From assembly GCF_965363235.1 (NCBI RefSeq), contig NC_134842.1, positions 36,745,958 through 36,809,957 of the forward strand: a DNA stretch of 64,000 bases, written 5' to 3'. Under the pieces are notes generated by a model, which was not told the DNA's origin, made no database searches, and saw only the letters and a program-made list of their open reading frames with translations. Shown here piece after piece: positions 7,690-53,645 of the stretch; the first letter of the stretch is position 1; each line of letters begins with the position of its first letter. Origin of the DNA: Mytilus galloprovincialis (Eukaryota > Mollusca > Bivalvia > Mytilida > Mytilidae). The position numbers and the translations under genes were made by a program.

Positions 7690-8840
7690 TGATCAATTGT
7701 GTTATAAGAAAAAATATGTTCTGGTCTTACGTACAATAAAATTATCATTTTCAAAATCAATTGCCACCTGTGAGTGACTTAAGAGAAGGAAAGCCATATC
7801 TTGGAGAAGGTCGGTCGCGATCGAGAATATGTTACACGATCAAGACCTAAATGAATACAGTATCATGCTTTATATGGACTGTTTGTACAAAATCTGACTC
7901 ATGAAATGAGCATACTACCAAATTCACAAGAAGTTCTTATTTTATAATTTAACGCCAGGAATTGAACTGTGGTAGAGATGACTATATTTTCTTACGCCAG
8001 TCTATCAAATCATTGAACGTCACAGAGTCATGACATGATTATAATTTCTGTGTTTAGCTTTCTTAAGCCGATATATACCTTTCAAGCTAAAACACATAGA
8101 GTTATCTGATGCGCGTGTCTAGTCCTAGGTACATTTGAACATACATACAAGAATATGCCGTTCTATGTGTTGCAATACTGGTTTTAGTGAGGACACATGA
8201 CACATGTGTCCATCTACCTTCACGTTATATATCACCCAGAATTTTATAACAAGTCATTTCAATGTGAAATCCACCTTACAATCCTCTGTACAAAGCAGGC
8301 AATTCCATTACCAAAAGTGGCTGATCTGCCGTTACTATCGATGTTTTTCTCGTTTTTACCACATTTTCCGTCTTATCCATCAAATACCTGATTATTGCAA
8401 CTGAATGGGCTTGTTTTTAAACAGTGGTTTCATAGATTTTACACTTACTTGCTTTTTAGAGTAATGAGATGAACTACGATTTATACCAGTTTGCCCTGGT
8501 AGTGCATACAAATCACTCATTATGTCTATAAATAGTTTGCGCATGCGCAAAATTGTTAAATCAGATATGTCATAACCTTGAAAAATGTTATCAAACCAGA
8601 TCATAATATCATTGAAAATCCCTAATGACTTATTTTATATTAAATAGTTGAAATATTTTTAAATGAATTTTGTAACATTTTCGCGCATGCGCAAACCCTG
8701 TATGTGTCAAATATTCATGTCTAGTGCATTATTCACATGTGAGGAAGGTAGCTACCAAACCTGACAGTAGTTTTTCACTAAAAGAAGGTAAACGAAAAGT
8801 TTTCCAGAAAAAATCAGTATTTTCAAACTGAAAAAAACAG
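7690..8840. other. gene-free stretch with two GCGCATGCGC palindromes
   Basis: No coding exon recognised. Two copies of the palindrome GCGCATGCGC lie at about 8540 and 8683, about 145 bp apart. This is the core of the known NRF-1 binding consensus, but no gene start is visible nearby, so regulatory use is only a guess. Confidence 0.4.
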
Positions 8841-13728: not shown

Positions 13729-33421
<19,693 letters not shown>

Positions 33422-35506: not shown

Positions 35507-37135
35507 TTAAACAAATAATACTAGAAAAAGAGGAACGAAAGATACCAAAGGGACAGTCAAACTCATAAATCTAAAACAAACTGACAACGCCATGGCTAAA
35601 AATGAAAAAAACAAACAGAAAAACAATAGAACACATGACACAACATAGAAAACTAAAGAATAAACAACACGAACCCCACCAAAAACTAGGGGTGATCTCA
35701 GGTGCTCCGGAAGGGTAAGCAGATCCTGCTCCACATGCTCCACATGTCTCCTATAAGTATCGTTGTGGTATATAGGAATCATAAGTGTTGCTTATGTGAT
35801 TACAAATCCGGTAAACAGTCTAATTCGGTAGGTCACATTCATGAATTTACGAAGGGATGATTTCAACTTCACCATTTGGAACTCTTGGTTTAATAGCTTC
35901 CTTGTGAGCAGTAACCCTCTATCAAGAAAATCATGATAGGAAATGCAAGCACGGGAATATCGTATCAATTGGGAGAAATATACCCCGTATGCAGGTTCTG
36001 CTGGAATGTTGCTACTTAGAAATGGAAAGTTCACAATTGGAAAGCTGAAATCATCTCTTTTGTCGTAAAGTTTTGTTTTCAACCGACCCTATTGTCAATT
36101 TCTAGATGTAAGTCGAGATATGAAGCCGACTTAACTGTATCTGTAGTATCCTTTATCTCCAATTCGATGGGATAGATGCGTTCCACATAGTCACCAAATT
36201 TTGAATTGTTTAGTGAAAGAACGTCATCTATATAGCGGAAAGTAGAGTTAAAGGATATTGCTAACTTCTTATCTTTCTTCCTAAGAAGTTCCTGCATGAA
36301 GTCAGCCTCATAATAATAAAGAAACAAGTCGGCAAGTAGAGGGGCACAGTTTGTTCCCATTGGGATGCCGACAGTCTGTTGAAAAACACGTCCTCCGAAC
36401 GTTACAAATATGTTGTCAATCAAGAAATCAAGCATCTTGATACTATCGGTTTCAGAGAATTTTTTGTTTGAATCAGAGTGATTCTTTACAAAGTATGATT
36501 TATCCCTCCCTAAGACAAGATACTTGTATCTACGTTGGCCATTCTTTTTTATGAAGCAAAGTAATACCAACTCTTTCAATTTGTCTTTTAGTTTGGAATG
36601 TGGAATACTTGTGTAAAGAGTAGAAAAGTCAAATGTTTTAATACTGTTACAAGATGAAAGAGAGTTAGATTGTATGAACATAAAAGATCTTTGGAATTTT
36701 TAAGTCTCCACATCTGATTCACGCCACCTCTAGAATAGGCAGTTTCACAATAACTTTGAAGCCCGTCTTTGATTGCTGATAAAATAGATGTTAATAATTT
36801 AGAAAGAGGTTTCGTGGAGCACTTGGAAGACCCAGCAATGTACCGTTGTTTGTAAGGACACTTATGTAGTTTAGGTATCCAATACAGTGATGGAAGATCC
36901 AGTTCTTCATCTTTGGTTGAAATACCTGAGGAACAAAGAACAGACCTATGATTATCCAGGATTTCCTCTTTGGTAAGTGTCGTGAGGGTATATGTTGAGT
37001 TTCCAAGTGAATTGTCTATACCTAATTCGTTTATCAAGCAATTAATGTAGTGACTTTTACAGACAAAAACGATGTTATTTGGGGCTTTGAAGTGATGCCT
37101 TGTATTCTGCACTATTGTGTTGGCTTGAAATATGA
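35507..37135 (-). mobile_element. Penelope-like retroelement, copy 3 (partial, broken)
   Basis: The minus strand from 37112 holds SLYWIPKLHKCPYKQRYIAG, FDFSTLYTSIPHSKLKDKL, GIPMGTNCAPLLADLFLYYY, FRYIDDVLSLNN and LIRYSRACISYHDF in order, spread over more than one frame. The 3' region (35507-35782) matches that of copy 2. The N-terminal third is missing, so it is 5'-truncated. Only a few breaks and high similarity to copy 2 suggest it is fairly young. Confidence 0.87.
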
Positions 37136-37314
37136 TTCCTATGTTCTTTTTCTGTAAATTTTTGATTAATCATGATGCTAAGGTTTGTCTATACTTAGAC
37201 ATAGATTGCCTGGGCCATGTTTAGGACAACTTTTCGAAATGTTCTGTTTTTGGTGCTGTAGTATTTGTATATGATATGGCCTTCTAACTATTTTGATTTG
37301 AACCCAACTGATGA

Positions 37315-37375
37315 TCTGTCTTTGTAGACATAACACGCGTCTGGCGTAAAATAAACTATGAGCTTGGTATCTTTA
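37315..37375 (+). repeat. decayed hammerhead-repeat fragment
   Basis: CAACTGATGATCTGTC, TGTAGACATAACACGCGTCT and GGCGTAAAATAAACTATGAG follow the order of the 53.2 kb repeat (CTGATGAG, AGACGAAAC, GTCTGGCGTATT, CTGGTA). The GAAA box is degraded, so it is unlikely to be active. It lies next to the truncated end of Penelope-like copy 3. Confidence 0.6.
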
Positions 37376-37534
37376 TTGAGTGTTTATCCCCACTGAATCC
37401 TTTTCCCCTTTTAAAGTTCCTCTGAATCTATTAAACTTTTTACAGTAATGTAGTAGCCAGAATTGCAGAAATTGAAAAGTTTATATTTTAGGTCGTTGTC
37501 TCCTATAAGTATCGTTGTGGTATATAATGTAGAT

Positions 37535-37910: not shown

Positions 37911-40900
37911 TTATGGATACAATTGAAAAACAGAATCATTACACACATAATATGACGTCATACTAGACACAGCTTTCAAGCAGTCAAAAGGATCAGTGTG
38001 CGACTCTTTAGGTATAACTAACAACTGACTTGTATCTAAAAGTATTTCTGTATAATTAGTAGAAATAGGCTCATTATGGTTTGTGGCGACTCCCAAAACT
38101 TCAATATCTGATTGGTTTAGATTTAGTATTTGGTCTCTGATTTCCGCGGAATAACCAGTGAATAAAGATGAAAACATCATAACTATTTTCCTAGCCAGAG
38201 GTCGTCCACCATTTGAACTACGAAAGGCATCAACGCCTACAAATTGAAGAGTATGGCTTAAATTAGATTCAACAGACACCTTGTCTAACACAACTTGAAA
38301 GGCAGCTGCAATACGGCTGTGAACGTTGTTCGACCATGATAATTTAAATACATAATCAGCATGATCTGAGTATGCAACCATACCTATTTGTACGTTAGGG
38401 TTATCGTTATATAAATCTTCAAGTAATTTCCTGATGGCTGTTTTTCGGTATTGAAACCCAAAACTCGACTGATTCTTTTGAACATCTAAAATTACGATGA
38501 TGTCAGCTTCTGTGTTACGTACGCACACTAAAAATGAAGTAAATGGTTAAAGTTAGTTATTAAATAAAAAATATAACTTAATTGAGTCAAGACTTCATTC
38601 AGATTTTACCGTTAAATGAAATCAAGGCAACACCAATTAGAGAATGATTAATATGCAGTATTTTTTCAAAGAAGAAAAGAAAGATAAAATATCCGTTTTA
38701 ATTGTTATTAAAATTTACTTAAAATAAAGGAATTTGCCGTTGAGATCAAGAAACATGTTATGGGCGTCACAAAGTTTTGACTGACTCTGCCTTCGTCTTG
38801 TAAACTTTGAAATTTAGCTAATATCGAAACATATAATACTCTTTTGAACTGTTTTATATCATGAAAAACTTCCCAAATGACAAATTTTAAAACATGTTAA
38901 AAATTAAAAAACAGTGAAAAGCTATTCTCAAAAATATATATATTTGAATTTAAAATAGAATATATATAAAATAGATTTTGAAATAATCATCCAGTTACCA
39001 ATTTTTTGTTGTAATTCAAAGAGGAGATTAAAATTTTTCAAAAGCTATTCTACTCATTTTTTGGGGGTATTTTTAGAAAAATATAACAAGAATCCTAATT
39101 TTGGCTAAGGATTTATCACATTTGTAAAAGGTGGCTTTTTCGACACTTTTACATAAATCCAACTCTTCTTCCAAAGGTTAAGTTGGAAGGCATAATGCAA
39201 ATTTTCTATAAACAGCGTATACAAATATCTACCCTGTCGTCTGACGGGGCCATGTCTTGTATACAACTGAAGAATGTTTTCTAAATTTTCGAACTTTTTA
39301 TTTTTTAATTGAAGGGACCAAAACAGTGGGTTTTTTAATTACTATAGATCAGTTATTGTGAAACTAGCATTTCAAGGACAATTGTTTAAAAAAAATGTTT
39401 TCGTTTATTTTATATGAATTAAGACGGAGGGTAAGATGCATTTTTCAATTTGTTAATTCGTTTATAAAAATTCAAACAGTTTGCTTGAAGTTTAATTAGA
39501 TAACTTTACACATGAGATGTCGACAAATAGTGTATTTGTTAAGCATGTGGTAGAATTGGCACTCATACCACATCTAGTACCGTTAATTTTATTATCATAT
39601 CTAGTAGTATTGTAAAAAAGCATTAGGATTATATAAGTGTATGTAGCTAAATATCTACCTGGACAACTGACGTCTATACTGTCTTGTATTAGCTGGTTGT
39701 AAATATCATCTAGGTGCATATGGGTGAACGCGTAATATTTACTGAATGCAATGTTTACAATCTCATCGTGAGAAACTGCATTCCCAATGCCTACTGTGAA
39801 AAGTTTTATTCTTTTTTCTCTCATTTTTTTGGCTTGTGATAATGCGTTCATTCTATCAGATGACAAACCATCATAAATTAAAATGACGTATTTGTAAGCA
39901 GAGATACGAGATCCAGATGACTTGTCGTGAAATATCTGCAATTAACGAAAAATGAAAACCATTAACATGATAAGCACTGAAAGTTTCAGAAAGATACTCA
40001 TCGATAAAGTGAATTTTACTCCTTGTTAACCTCTCCCTATAGATTTGTTCACATGCCTAAGTCGAATGGTAAACAATAAGATTAAAAAGAGCCTTCAAAT
40101 CAAAACTGAAGACTTATAATCAAGAGTATTATCGCACGACCCGGGGTTAATTAGTTTTAAAAGTTAACAATTTGAAATATTGTTTGTTATATTTGAGAAG
40201 TTTTGTAAAATGTGTTTTTTGTATTATTTTTCATACCTCGTCTGCTTTTTGTAAGGCCTCACCAGTATTTGTTGGTCCATTAGAAATGTGTATTTCATGA
40301 AATGCAGATGTAACTGATTGTACACTTTTATATTCTACAAAGTTAAAGACAAGCGAGGGATGGTAGTTGTATTTCATCAGAGCAATTTGAAAATCTTCAG
40401 ATCCTATAGGCAACCTTTTAACAATGTACGTCATAATTTCGATAGTTCTATTTAGATGACCTTCTGTACTGGTAGATGTATCTACTATGAAAAGAATATC
40501 AGCTGGCCCGGGTCTACAGTCTATGAAAAAAAGTTATAGTTCATGCGATACATTATTAACATAATTCATAATCTGTAGGCAAGTAAACTAATTATTATTC
40601 TTATTTACTTGCACCATTTTCTGTATGTCTGCTGAATGACCAGAATTCGTCGCATATTTATAGTGTCAATAATTCTGCAATTTATTGATTAATGTTGTCA
40701 AAAGATGAAAATAATAATGGCAGTTTCATGAGCCACAAATGTTTTTATCACTTTTCTTTTCTTCATTTTTCTTCTTTTGAGGGTAAAAAAAGGTAACCAT
40801 TTCCATAATAAAGAATACTAGTAAACTTCAAAACTTCATCAGCATTATATCTTAATATTGGTTTCTGGCAACATATTGATAAACTATCTTAACATTATAC

Positions 40901-43900
40901 AATATTCCAAACATTAAGAAAGAACCATTATGTAGCTTCAAAGAATAAAAGGCTAGAATAAAAAACGATTATCTTTTACTCTGATAAATAATTATAGATT
41001 ATTACATGGCATTTTTCATATTGCCCTGGTATCAGCCCTAGACTCCAATATCAAGCCAGAGGGCTTTAGCCCGAGGGCTTGATATGGGTCGTGGGCTGGT
41101 ACCAGGGACCATATGAAAAATGACATGTAATAATCTATTTATCACATATTTTTAAGCAAGAGAAAACAAATAGCTTACACCAAATTATGTTTGATATTTC
41201 ATCAAAAATCAAAAAGATATTTAACGAAAATAAAATAAAAAATGTATCACTGTGAGTTTAAAAAAAGTTCGTATCACAGTAGGTAAACAACGTTTTGTGA
41301 AAAGTTTCAGAAATGATTAACAATAAATATATTAATTCTAAGAATTGCAAATATTAAACGACTTTAAAATGTTACATTACAAATGTTAAAAATGCTTAAG
41401 AAGAATCCTATATCGCTACTCATTCCAGTGTGGCGTCATATATTTTATAAATTCTTTATGACGTCAAAATTTTACGGGAACTTTTGTGATTTTCACTGTT
41501 GATTTCTACTTTTTTCTTCTACAGCAGATTCGTAACTTTCTAAATTTCTTTTCATTGTGTTCAACTTGTTTACAAATAGTCTTTGATTGACAGTTTACCG
41601 GAAGTTAAACTCGGGGGCTTGATATGGATTTCGAGGGCTGATATCGATATCGGCCCCGAGGGCTGATAACCAACCTTGACTTCCGGCTATTATTGGCCAT
41701 GCAAAAACGTACATATCAGTACAAAATATGTGATAAGATATTTTAAAATCTAAATGTTGCTTTGGACAAGATAAAAATGTTTATACCAGGTTTACAAACA
41801 TTCCACTGTATCTTTTTCTGACCATTACAGTTAAAATTATCCACGTTTGTGTCATTACTGCATGTGATGTTATAATCATTCAAATCACAGGGTTTACCTG
41901 GAAAAAAATGTGAATGAGTATGTTGAGTATGTTAAACTGTCCCGTTATTTCAGCAAATATCTTTAGGTTATAAAAGTTACATATAAAACTTCTATTGCAT
42001 AAAACAAGAGTACAATGAGGCTGACAGAACTATAACAATATATCAAGGGTTTAGTTTTGTTAATCGATGTTTGGCTTTTGGGTAGTCTTTTTTTGGGTCA
42101 TTTCTGTTCCGACAAAACCAATAAAAGTCTACTTTGACAGGAAGTAGCAATATATAAGGAGTGAGCCCGGATGAATGCGGCTTTTCTTGGATCTAAGCTT
42201 ATACGAGAGCAAGACACTAGGTCTAAAAAGTATTTTTTTATCCAGTAATAACACAGAGACAGAGTCAATTTTATTTCAATGAAGAAACTGTTAACTTATC
42301 AAAGATACTAGGATTTAAATTTTGTATTAAATGAACTGCACAAAACTATCTTAAATTCAAGCGTATACGAGCGAAAGACACTATGTTTTAAAAGATGTAA
42401 GAATATTGCTTTATCAAGTTATAACACAAAGACAGATACGATTTTATTTCAATGACGAAAATGTAAATAAAGTTACCTTAGATATCAGGATTGAAATTTT
42501 GTATTTAATAAACTCTACAAATTGACCCCTTCAACAAAGTCACATAGTATAATGCTTTAAAACAATAATACTGAACTTCAAGGTAAATACAAAAAGAAAA
42601 AAGAAAAAAAAATGACATCATCACACGTTATTAACAAACGGAAGGAGTAAAAATCAATTGTCACATTCCTGACTTGGTACTGGCATTTTCCGAAGAGTGA
42701 TAACAAATTACTGTTTTGTACATTGGGAACCATTGCGTAACACTTCGTTTGGGATACTCTGTTGCAGGTGTTGAAGATCGTCTTTCGGTATACGATAGAG
42801 GAGAAAAAACCGCTATAGATTGTTCATTATAGAATTTCAAATTTTAGAATTTCTATGGATAAAGAGACTCTTTTATATGAACTGACGAACGATGAAATTG
42901 CAAGTTCAGGGTTTCTTTGGATATCTCTCACTTTACATTTCAAATGTTTAAACACTGTCATTATCACAGATGTCCACGTATACTGACAAGACTGTAACAT
43001 AAGTAATTTATTCGCATAAGATGGGAAACGTTTTCAAATGTTATGGATGAGCTCATGCTTGATTTTCTCACTCTTCGTCATTTTGAATGAATGTTGTCTC
43101 AGTCTTGAACAAGAATTTTTTTCTTGATTTTTTTTCGATCGACTTAAGAATATGCGTTCTCAACAATTACCAATCCCTTTATATTTGCATGGACTTGTAA
43201 TAGATACTTATGTTATGTTACTACGCTGAACATGAAAAACTACAAGATACTTATGTTATGTTACTACGCTGAACAAGAAAACCTACAAGATACTTATGTT
43301 ATGTTACTACGCTGAACAAGAAAACCTACAAGATACTTATGTTATGTTACTACGCTGAACATGAAAAACTACAAGATACTTATGTTATGTTACTATGCTG
43401 AACATGAAAAGCTACAAGATACTTATTTTATGTTACTTCGCTGATACATAAACATGAAAACCTACAAGATACTTTATGTTATGTTACTACGCTGAACATG
43501 AAAAGCTACAAGATACTTATGTTATGTTACTACGCTGAACAAGAAAACCTACAAGATACTTATGTTATGTTACTTCGCTGATACATAAACATGAAAACCT
43601 ACAAGATACTTTATGTTATGTTACTACGCTGAACATGAAAAACTAAAATATACTTATGTTATGTTACTACGCTGAACATGAAAAGCTACAAGATACTTAT
43701 GTTATGTTACTACGCTGAACATGAAAAACTACAAGATACTTATGTTATGTTACTACGCTGAACAAGAAAACCTACAAGACACTTATGTTATGTTACTTCG
43801 CTGAACATGAAAACCTACAAGATACTTATGTTATGTTACTACGCTGAACAAGAAAACCTACAAGATACTTATGTTATGTTACTACGCTGAACATGAAAAA

Positions 43901-46900
43901 CTACAAGATACTTATGTTATGTTACTTCGCTGAATAAGAAAACCTACAAGATACTTATGTTATGTTACTACGCTGAACATGAAAACCTACAAGATACTTA
44001 TGTTATGTTACTACGCTGAACAAGAAAACCTACAAGATACTTATGTTATGTTACTACGCTGAACAAGAAAACCTACAAGATACTTATGTAATGTTACTAC
44101 GCTGAACATGAAAAACTACAAGATACTTATGTTATGTTACTACGCTAAACAAGAAAACCTACAAGATACTTATGTTATGATACTTCGCTGATACATAAAC
44201 ATGAAAACCTACAAGATACTTTATGTTATGTTACTACGCTGAACATGAAAAACTACAAGATACTTATGTTATGTTACTACGCTGAACATGAAAAACTACA
44301 AGATAATTATGTTATGTTACTACGCTGAACAAGAAAACCTACAAGATACTTATGTTATGTTACTACGCTGAACAAGAAAACCTACAAGATACTTTATGTT
44401 ATGTTACTACGCTGAACAAGAAAACCTACAAGATACTTATGTTATGTTACTACGCTGAACAAGAAAACCTACAAGATACTTATGTTATGTTACTTCGCTG
44501 ATACATAAACATGAAAACCTACAAGATACTTATGTTATGTTACTACGCTGAACATGAAAAAATATTCAAGATATTTATGTTATGTTACTACGCTGAACAT
44601 GAAAAGCTACAATATACTGATGTTATGTTACTACGCTGAACAAGAAAACCTACAAGATACTTATGTTATGTTACTTCGCTGATACATAAACATGAAAACC
44701 TACAAGATACTTATGTTATGTTACTAAGCTGAACATGAAAAACTACAAGATACTTATGTTATGTAACTACTCTGAAAAAGAAAACCTACAAGATACTTAT
44801 GTTATGTTACTAAGCTGAACAAGAAAACCTACAAGATACTTATGTTATGTTACTACGCTGAACAAGAAAACCTACAAGATACTTATGTTATGTTACTACG
44901 CAGAAAATGAAAAACTACAAGATACTTATGTTATGTTACTTCGCTGATACATAAACATGAAAACCTACAAGATACTTATGTTATGTTACTACGCAGAACA
45001 TGAAAAACTACAAGATACTTATGTTATGTTACTACGCTGAACAAGAAAACCTACAAGATACTTATGTTATGTTACTACGCTGAACATGAAAAACTACAAG
45101 ATATTTATGTTATGTTACTACGCTGAACATGAAAAACTACAATATACTTATGTTATGTTACTACGCTGAACCAGAAAACCTACAAGATACTTATGTTATG
45201 TTACTTCGCTGATACATAAACATGAAAATCTACAAGATACTTATGTTATGTTACTAAGCTGAACATGAAAAACTACAAGATACTTATGTTATGTTACTAC
45301 GCTGAACATGAAAAACTACAAGATACTTATGTTATGTTACTACGCTGAACAAGAAAACCTACAAGATACTTATGTTATGTTACTTCGCTGAACAAGAAAA
45401 CCTACAAGATACTTATGTTATGTTACTACGCTGAACAAGAAAACCTACAAGATACTTATGTTATGTTACTACGCTGAACAAGAAAACCTACAAGATACTT
45501 ATGTTATGTTACTACGCTGAACAAGAAAACCTACAAGATACTTATGTTATGTTACTACGCTGAACAAGAAAACCTACAAGATACTTATGTTATGTTACTA
45601 CGCTGAACAAGAAAACCTACAAGATACTTATGTTATGTTACTACGCTGAACAAGAAAACCTACAAGATACTTATCTTATGTTACTACGCTGAACAAGAAA
45701 ACCTACAAGATACTTATCTTATGTTACTACGCTGAACAAGAAAACCTACAAGATGCTTATGTTATGTTACTTCGCTGATACATAAACATGAAAACCTACA
45801 AGATACTTTATGTTATGTTACTACGCTGATACATTAACATGAAAACCTACAAGATACTTTTGTACGACTTTGCCCCCTGCACAGCTATAGAAAAATAGCA
45901 CATTAACGGGTGTTACACGGACTCTTTTTAAACGATACACGGACACTTTTTAGTTGTAACACGGACACTTTTTATGAATAGAATCACTCGTGCATGATCA
46001 GTGAGTTTATGGGCACTTTAACTTTCAATTAGATTTGAATTTTTTGTTTCACCGACTTATTTCCTGTCTTTTTATTGAACAAAATATTTACGTTAGCATC
46101 AATATCTTTTTTCAAACATTTCCAGTTAAATACTATTTATATCAGTACACTAAGGGATTAGACATTTAACTTCAAAAAGGGGGGGGTATGGTTTTCCTCT
46201 AAAATAGATATTTTGATCCCAAATTTGATGAGAAAATTTTATGGTCAAGCAGATGACAAATTAATGTTTTGCATGATTCCTGATTTTCCGAATACCGTTA
46301 ATAGTGCTAATTTATACAAAAACATTTGGGTGATGGCGTTGTAAAGTAAATAGTTAATATACTAATAAAAGAACATACCGCCCCCTTTATGAAGCAAAAT
46401 ATTTGGTCAATAAATGTTTTCTTCAATATATGGACATTGCTGAAAGTAAAGAAATGATGATACTGACGTGTATATTTCAATAAAAATAAGACAAGAAATA
46501 AGCAAATAAAAATCAAATCTAATATCAAAAGATAAAGTCCCTATCAACTCACCTATGCACGATTGATCCTATAACCAAAAAGTGTTCATGTAATACACGT
46601 CCAAATAAGCAGCAAATCTAGAAAAAAATCATTCAACTTATGTCATCAATTTTGGGCGGTAAGCTGCGATTGGATCATATATTAACCCGTGTTTAATCCC
46701 GATCAACACTTGCAGATCTAGAGACGAGCATGAATTAACAAAAAATCAAAGTATATGCCTGAATATATAATATTAAGACAAAATCCATTTTTTCATAAAC
46801 ATTTCATTCACTATTGAAGCAGGAAATTCATTCTTTTGATACATTTATATTTTTATCGAATTTATATCAGTGGCGGATCCAGGTCCAAATCCAGGACAAA

Positions 46901-52844: not shown

Positions 52845-53645
52845 CACTACCACTCTGTAAAATTGTAGACGAAACGCGCGTCTGGCGTATTAAATTATAA
52901 ACCTGGTACATGTGGTATCTTTGATAACTATTTACACCACTGGGTCGATGCCACTGCAAGTGGACGTTTCGTATCCAAGGTCATCACAAGCCGAATCGTC
53001 ATCACTTGGGTTGACATGAATATAATCATTTTATTTTTATAAATTTCCTGATTGCAATACTTTAAATTTTCGAAAAACTAAGTTATTTTTATTACAGGCA
53101 TTGGTAACCTTAGCCGTATTGGGCCCACACTTTTGGAATTTTTGGTTCTCAATGCTCTTCAACTTTGTACTTATTTGGCTTTATAACTATTTTGATCTGA
53201 TCATCACTGATGAGTCTAATGCAGACGAAACGGCGTCTGGCGTATTTAATTATAATCTGGTACCTTTGATAACTATTTACACCACTGGGTTGATGCCTCT
53301 GCTGGTGGAGTTTCGTCCCCGAGGGTATCATCACCCCAGTAGTTAGCACTTCGATGTTGACATGAATATCAAGTATATGGTAATTTTTTTTTATAAATTT
53401 CCTGATTGCAAAACTTAAAATGTTCGAAAAATCTACGGACTTTCTTATCCCAGGCATAAATTACCTTCGCCGTATTTGACACAACCTTTTGGAATTTTGG
53501 ATTATCAATGCTCTTCAACTGTGTACTTGTTTGGCTTTATAACTATTTTGATCTGAGCATCACTGATGAGTAATGAATTTCATGTAGACGAAACGCGCAT
53601 CTGGCGTTTTAAATTATAATCCTGGTACATGTGATTCCTATTTGG
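52845..53645 (+). ncRNA. tandem repeat with hammerhead-ribozyme cores (retrozyme-like)
   Basis: Related units of about 360 bp each contain GACGAAAC at 52868, 53224 and 53587 (spacing 356 and 363). Units 2 and 3 also carry the catalytic box CTGATGAG at 53207 and 53563. Unit 2 has a 4 bp stem II (GTCT/AGAC) between the two boxes. GAAAC is followed by a short GC palindrome and an NUH cleavage triplet (GTC in units 1 and 2, ATC in unit 3). The first unit has lost CTGATGA. Tandem units with type I hammerheads and tiny stem III are described for small circular-RNA retrozymes of metazoans, including mussels. The unit body also has GGGTCGATGCCACTGCAAGT and TTCCTGATTGCAA. Confidence 0.75.

What the first reader, a model, noticed from the sequence alone, without database searches (positions are those of the whole stretch)
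52845..53645. Tandem hammerhead-ribozyme repeat (retrozyme-like) upstream of the lectin/vWA gene
Seen: units of about 360 bp, two with both conserved boxes CTGATGAG and GACGAAAC in the right order and spacing, and a pairing stem II in unit 2. Known: type I hammerheads occur in Penelope-like elements and in small metazoan retrozymes that make circular RNAs. Inference: a transcript from this array could self-cleave to units of about 360 nt. The very short stem III suggests it works best as a dimer.
Basis: partly seen in the sequence, partly recalled or inferred. Interest (0 to 1): 0.7.

Follow-up and report, generated by a model that had tools for sequence, protein, structure and literature searches.

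The report
Decayed mussel retrozyme with hammerhead ribozymes
This is an old, worn-out copy of a very common mussel-type jumping element that carries self-cutting RNA motifs; the copy itself is ordinary, but its thousands of relatives in the same genome suggest how such ribozyme circles are written back into DNA.

Summary
The array is real: window 52864-53643, two near-full units plus an 81-nt partial one, with two hammerhead cores (53207, 53563) and a 5' half-core. It is an old member of an abundant family in its own genome (1.38 Gb, 14 large contigs; mussel-like): 31,180 cores at up to 2 mismatches. Size, ribozyme type and G+C fit published mussel non-LTR retrozymes. This copy is decayed: its units are 87% alike, stems I and III are damaged, and Rfam gives 14.7-18.8 bits against 33 for intact relatives. 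It probably makes no circles. Across the family, 38 of 44 insertions end at one 3' region, about 40 nt past the ribozyme cut site, while 5' ends scatter over the unit. Copy number falls from 26,966 to 9,757 across that point. Single short insertions span the cut site, so the template was circular or uncut. Best reading: reverse transcription, probably target-primed, from a fixed site on a circular RNA. The helper element was not found; one Penelope-like family shares no tail. No lectin/vWA gene was found beside the array.

The parts
52864..53643 (+). Whole retrozyme insertion: 5'-truncated tandem of two near-full units plus a partial third
   Evidence: TRF 52867-53643, period 356; limits from family units
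52864..53206 (+). Unit 1, 5'-truncated inside the ribozyme (starts near unit position 14)
52868..52888 (+). 3' half of a hammerhead (GACGAAAC GCGCGTC TGGCGT); the 5' half is missing because of truncation
   Evidence: sequence
53199..53243 (+). Hammerhead a: core intact, stem II pairs, stem III 2 bp with a 3-nt loop, stem I with a C/A mismatch; predicted cut after 53237
   Evidence: sequence read by eye; 18.8 bits to RF00008 at 53196-53230, below its threshold of 48.5
53207..53562 (+). Unit 2, full length, 356 bp
53557..53607 (+). Hammerhead b: core intact, enlarged stem II, stem III down to 1 bp, stem I C/A mismatch; predicted cut after 53601
   Evidence: sequence read by eye; 14.7 bits to RF00163, below its threshold of 34
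53563..53643 (+). Partial third unit ending at the family's fixed 3' point (decayed ...CTATTT)
   Evidence: family units match through 53643; end read by eye

Best explanation
The array is an old, 5'-truncated insertion of a non-autonomous, mussel-type non-LTR retrozyme. Shown: family membership within this genome, decay of this copy, a preferred 3' end with scattered 5' ends across the family, and short insertions that cross the predicted ribozyme cut site. Inferred: an RNA transcribed from some intact copy was cut by its type I hammerheads and closed into a circle of about 355 nt; a reverse transcriptase supplied by another element started at one site (...CTTTGATAACTAT(T)), about 40 nt past the cut site, probably primed by nicked target DNA, and copied the circle for a fraction of a turn up to 20 or more turns. 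That gives tandem DNA with a constant 3' end and random 5' truncation. This copy ran about 2.2 turns and has since decayed, so it is most likely not an active source now.
For: Own genome: 115 matches with only 40 of 14,568 candidates scored, and 31,180 hammerhead cores at up to 2 mismatches with a reversed control of 0. 3' ends: 38 of 44 arrays or fragments end at unit position 65-81 (KS against uniform p=4e-14; the 65-81 band was set after seeing the data), while 43 5' ends are compatible with uniform (p=0.15). Copy counts at up to 2 mismatches, unit positions: 13-40 26,429, 45-72 26,966, 72-99 9,757, 104-131 10,068, about 259-286 14,882, about 282-309 14,962; reversed controls 0 in each. Of ten hand-picked places, six (L067, L070, L073, L074, L075, L076) end at unit position 73-75, among them L075, where only the last 29 nt before the junction are present. 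Predicted cut after unit position 32, so short insertions such as L070 (position 303 round to 75) span it. Within-array identity median 98.9%, between arrays 95.2%, and in 6 of 35 arrays all full units are identical. Intact hammerheads 33.0-33.3 bits against 14.7 and 18.8 here. Published circular RNA and cleavage for mussel repeats of about 350-390 bp.
Against: Target-site duplications are weak: of three windows tried, only the narrowest gives p=0.0025, the others 0.042 and 0.117, over 36 arrays, and a wider scan is close to its null (mean 5.63 against 5.17, 38 arrays). Six of 44 ends are not in the fixed region: L018 at 210, L013 at 58, three fragments of half a unit or less, and the window copy itself, whose decayed tail the unit BLAST did not join. 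Four of the ten hand-picked places do not end there: L068 about 20 nt earlier, L071 diverged near the end, L069 and L072 run on. No autonomous partner was identified. A linear uncut multimer as template would also cross the cut site.
Confidence: 0.8

Rival explanations
1. Same fixed start site, but the template is a linear, uncut multi-unit transcript rather than a circle; the ribozyme would then be incidental to integration.
For: Short insertions cross the cut site, which an uncut transcript also allows. Some arrays carry repeating two-unit patterns (L038 FGFGF, L015 ABABCB, and L043 with lag-1 22.8 and lag-2 8.7 differences), which a transcript of an existing mixed array could give.
Against: Arrays reach about 23 units with nearly identical units (L024: 19 of 22 full units of one type), easier to get from repeated turns on one circle. 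Mussel RNA of this kind is reported as mostly circular.
Confidence: 0.15
2. Ordinary satellite DNA spread by unequal crossing-over, with hammerhead boxes as passengers.
For: Head-to-tail units and some higher-order patterns.
Against: Dispersed copies on all 14 large contigs, some shorter than one unit; clustered 3' ends and scattered 5' ends; nearly threefold drop of copy number at the junction; ribozyme core preserved in most of the units that one search printed.
Confidence: 0.03
3. Part (pseudo-LTR) of a Penelope-like element with a minimal hammerhead.
For: The genome has many GIY-YIG matches (147, from 150 of 1001 candidates scored), some in open frames of up to 911 aa, as Penelope-like elements have.
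Against: In 20 such loci fetched (about 1.5 kb each side of the match, so 5' ends were not covered), the only hammerhead match lies in a separate retrozyme copy in L064. Apart from the retrozyme copies in L064 and L066 and one weak 4-edit match in L051, no tail is shared. Stem III has 2 bp and a loop rather than the minimal Penelope form described in PMC7761336 (passages).
Confidence: 0.02

Closest known systems
Non-LTR retrozymes of Mytilus galloprovincialis (Cervera & de la Pena 2020, PMC7229834)
   Same: Type I hammerhead, tandem repeats of about 350-390 bp, low G+C, thousands of copies
   Different: The published letters were not available here, so identity was not tested. The paper counts about 5000 hammerheads; this genome gives 31,180 cores at up to 2 mismatches. 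In the parts I read (parts 1-4 of the paper, passages of the 2020 review) no fixed 3' end is described.
Newt and axolotl hammerhead repeats (retrozymes of about 330-350 bp)
   Same: Type I, short stem III, tandem units
   Different: Reported to need dimeric ribozymes; the mussel repeat is reported to cleave as a cloned single repeat
Penelope-like elements with minimal hammerheads
   Same: Type I hammerhead, tandem and truncated insertions, insertions without target duplication known in a rotifer (passages)
   Different: Encode RT and GIY-YIG; in the one family compared here 8 of 11 printed copies end by eye in (TA)n, and none shares the retrozyme tail

Membership tests
Metazoan non-LTR retrozyme | Type I hammerhead in the repeat | tested here: met
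   Family: RF00163 33.0-33.3 bits in intact units, one unit 36.1. Window copy: recognisable but decayed, 14.7 bits
Metazoan non-LTR retrozyme | Tandem units of about 150-450 bp with G+C below 45-50% | tested here: met
   Mostly 353-363 bp units; G+C 0.36-0.39
Metazoan non-LTR retrozyme | Dispersed insertions, no coding frame | tested here: met
   Matches on all 14 large contigs; longest stop-to-stop frame in the window array 106 aa
Metazoan non-LTR retrozyme | No LTR, primer binding site or polypurine tract | not tested
   No LTR-like pair was seen by eye at the array ends, but no dedicated search was run
Metazoan non-LTR retrozyme | Target-site duplications where present | tested here: inconclusive
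   Short 5-7 nt repeats in a few arrays; p=0.0025 to 0.117 by choice of window
Metazoan non-LTR retrozyme | Linear and circular monomer RNA in tissue | not testable with these tools
   No RNA data; published for M. galloprovincialis
Penelope-like element | RT plus GIY-YIG frame joined to the repeat | tested here: not met
   No RT or GIY-YIG hit among the ORFs tested at 45.9-64 kb (10 of 20 listed); a weak RVT_1 hit lies 16 kb away; no clear shared tail in 20 GIY-YIG loci

The most novel reading that the evidence does not exclude
Mussel retrozymes are integrated by reverse transcription that starts at one fixed 20-30 nt site (...CCTGGTACCTTTGATAACTAT(T)) on a ribozyme-made RNA circle and runs for any length, from 29 nt to more than 20 turns. 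Two-unit periodic arrays (L038, L043) would then record circles of two units, in L043 with one of the two ribozymes dead. The site would be the missing handle for finding the helper element, which a 2020 review says metazoan retrozymes lack.
Probability: 0.5. Interest if true: 0.65.

Novelty: new member of a known kind. Interest (0 to 1): 0.42.

Why it matters
The window copy itself is ordinary. The family-wide pattern bears on an open question: how ribozyme-made RNA circles return to the genome, and with whose enzyme. A fixed start site with random 5' truncation, supported by copy counts over tens of thousands of sites, turns the published proposal of a primed circular RNA into something testable and gives a sequence tag for finding the helper element.

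Tried and rejected
Rfam at gathering threshold on the window: no hit; not taken as refutation because intact relatives miss the cut-off by about 1 bit. In one search the window stretch (L046) gave no match at E up to 1. A second, shared-tail family was considered because copy counts jump from about 15,000 (position 282-309) to 31,180 (position 1-32). The ten small loci showed instead short, truncated or altered copies of the same family, and no foreign body with the same tail; ten loci cannot exclude one. A different, related hammerhead with another body was seen once, next to an array in L011. Dead-ribozyme explanation of two-unit arrays: fits L043 only; in L038 and L015 the alternating cores look intact. 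Penelope as helper by shared tail: not supported for the family examined. Circular folding of seven units or pieces: no strong excess stability, z -0.4 to -1.5. Exact scans of viral contigs and genome contigs and a distant phage search: nothing. Literature: searches. I read parts 1-4 of 6 of PMC7229834, passages of PMC7761336 and PMC3846280, and only listings with abstract starts for the rest. I saw no report of a fixed 3' end in these; subscription journals and supplements were not searched.

Full report
What is there. The window holds a tandem of two near-full units and an 81-nt partial unit at 52864-53643. Two hammerhead cores lie at 53207 and 53563; the 5' end begins inside a third. The boxes are more than chance. 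Stem pairing was read by eye: in the first core stem II pairs well, stem III is 2 bp with a 3-nt loop, and stem I has a C/A mismatch; in the second, stem III is down to one pair, stem II is enlarged and stem I has the same mismatch. Rfam gives 18.8 bits (type III model) and 14.7 bits (type I), both below threshold. Three other weak pieces of the family lie in the window.

What it belongs to. The window's own genome (1.38 Gb, 331 contigs, 14 of them large) holds the family in very high number: 115 matches from 40 of 14,568 candidates scored and 31,180 hammerhead cores at up to 2 mismatches (15,432 + 15,748; reversed control 0). I fetched 38 stretches, one of them the window's own. Units are mostly 353-363 bp. 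The commonest ribozyme is tgatatgagcgtca CTGATGAGTCTTATGTAGACGAAAC gcgcgtctggcgta. In seven loci scanned at a loose threshold, intact units score 33.0-33.3 bits, about one bit below Rfam's cut-off, and altered ones 24.9-29.3; in five loci scanned at the cut-off, one unit passes with 36.1.

State of this copy. Its two units match at 282 of 323 aligned bases, with 32 gap columns, and unit 2 is on average 89.5% like units of other arrays (best 91.6%). Units within one array have a median identity of 98.9% and units from different arrays a mean of 95.2%; in 6 of 35 arrays all full units are identical. So the window copy is old, while other copies look recent.

How the family inserts. Of 44 arrays or fragments whose 3' end lies inside the fetched stretch, 38 end at unit position 65-81, just after ...CTTTGATAACTA(T)(T). 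The 43 5' ends are compatible with a uniform spread (KS p=0.15; 3' ends p=4e-14); three of the 5' ends at position 1 may be set by the BLAST match rather than by a real end. Those arrays were found by similarity to the window, so I also used counts that do not depend on that choice: positions 13-40 26,429, 45-72 26,966, 72-99 9,757, 104-131 10,068, about 259-286 14,882, about 282-309 14,962. The count drops nearly threefold at the junction and climbs back along the unit, as expected from a fixed 3' end and 5' truncation. These six 28-mers were matched in 98-100% of full units, averaged over 35 fetched arrays, but older copies may differ in how well each k-mer survives.

Small hand-picked sample. 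Ten places on C1 were taken from the k-mer lists: five with an exact core but no exact body k-mer listed nearby, and five with an exact tail k-mer but no exact core listed nearby. That choice favours truncated or altered copies, but does not choose the 3' end. L067, L070, L073, L074, L075 and L076 end at unit position 73-75. L068 stops about 20 nt earlier, L071 is diverged near the end, and L069 and L072 run on past the site. L075 holds only the last 29 nt before the junction.

Mechanism. The predicted cut lies after unit position 32, about 40 nt before the junction. A linear monomer cut there would have these two parts at opposite ends, yet single short insertions contain both, so the template was circular or uncut. 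Circular RNA and cleavage at about 0.1 per min are published for mussel repeats of about 350-390 bp (PMC7229834, parts 1-4 read). The same paper proposes that a primed circle gives tandem cDNA; the 2020 review states that metazoan retrozymes show no conserved motif pointing to their helper (PMC7761336, passages). The fixed end may be such a motif. Target duplications are weak, which leaves target priming as inference; a Penelope insertion with a microhomology junction and no duplication has been described in a rotifer (PMC3846280, passages).

Helper. PF01541 gives 147 GIY-YIG matches from 150 of 1001 candidates scored, with frames up to 911 aa, consistent with Penelope-like elements. In 20 loci fetched, the only hammerhead match lies in a retrozyme copy in L064; L066 also has a retrozyme copy nearby. 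No clear tail is shared, apart from those copies and one weak match in L051. Eleven copies of one family were printed, and 8 of them end by eye in (TA)n. Other RT families were not examined.

Two-unit arrays. L043 and L038 show alternating unit types (lag-1/lag-2 differences 22.8/8.7 and 18.1/11.7) and L015 alternates by about one difference. In L043 one of the alternating ribozymes has a broken core. Two-unit circles would explain this; so would later exchange between units.

Verdict. This copy is a fossil, its place next to a lectin/vWA gene is not supported by the ORFs tested, and the wider value lies in the insertion pattern of the family.

Noticed in passing
window 15238-15519 (-), 19861-19906 (+), 37178-37395 (+): Further degraded pieces of the same retrozyme family (best matches 72-83% identity).
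   Followed up: partly
window 29162-29885; L031 flanks: A 161-bp tandem repeat; by eye the same repeat flanks the retrozyme insertion in L031, which seems to sit in it with little or no target duplication.
   Followed up: partly
window 43202-45834: A 43-bp tandem repeat of about 60 copies, 90% matches.
   Followed up: no
window 20152-21073: A 166-bp tandem repeat of 5.5 copies.
   Followed up: no
window 36079-36699 (-): Weak reverse transcriptase hit (RVT_1, 27.7 bits, below cut-off) near a vWA ORF at 37911-38546 (-).
   Followed up: no
L011, minus strand near 7979: A related but different hammerhead repeat (core ...GGCTTTTGTAAACGAAACGCCCGTC...) with another body, directly after a retrozyme's 3' end; perhaps the second published mussel family.
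   Followed up: partly
L074: Right after the fixed 3' end follows, by eye, an inverted copy of the same tail (tail to tail).
   Followed up: no
G000, e.g. C13:29486141(-)/29488874(+), C8:49535925(-)/49540784(+): Several GIY-YIG matches lie as close inverted pairs, a known oddity of Penelope-like elements (recalled).
   Followed up: no
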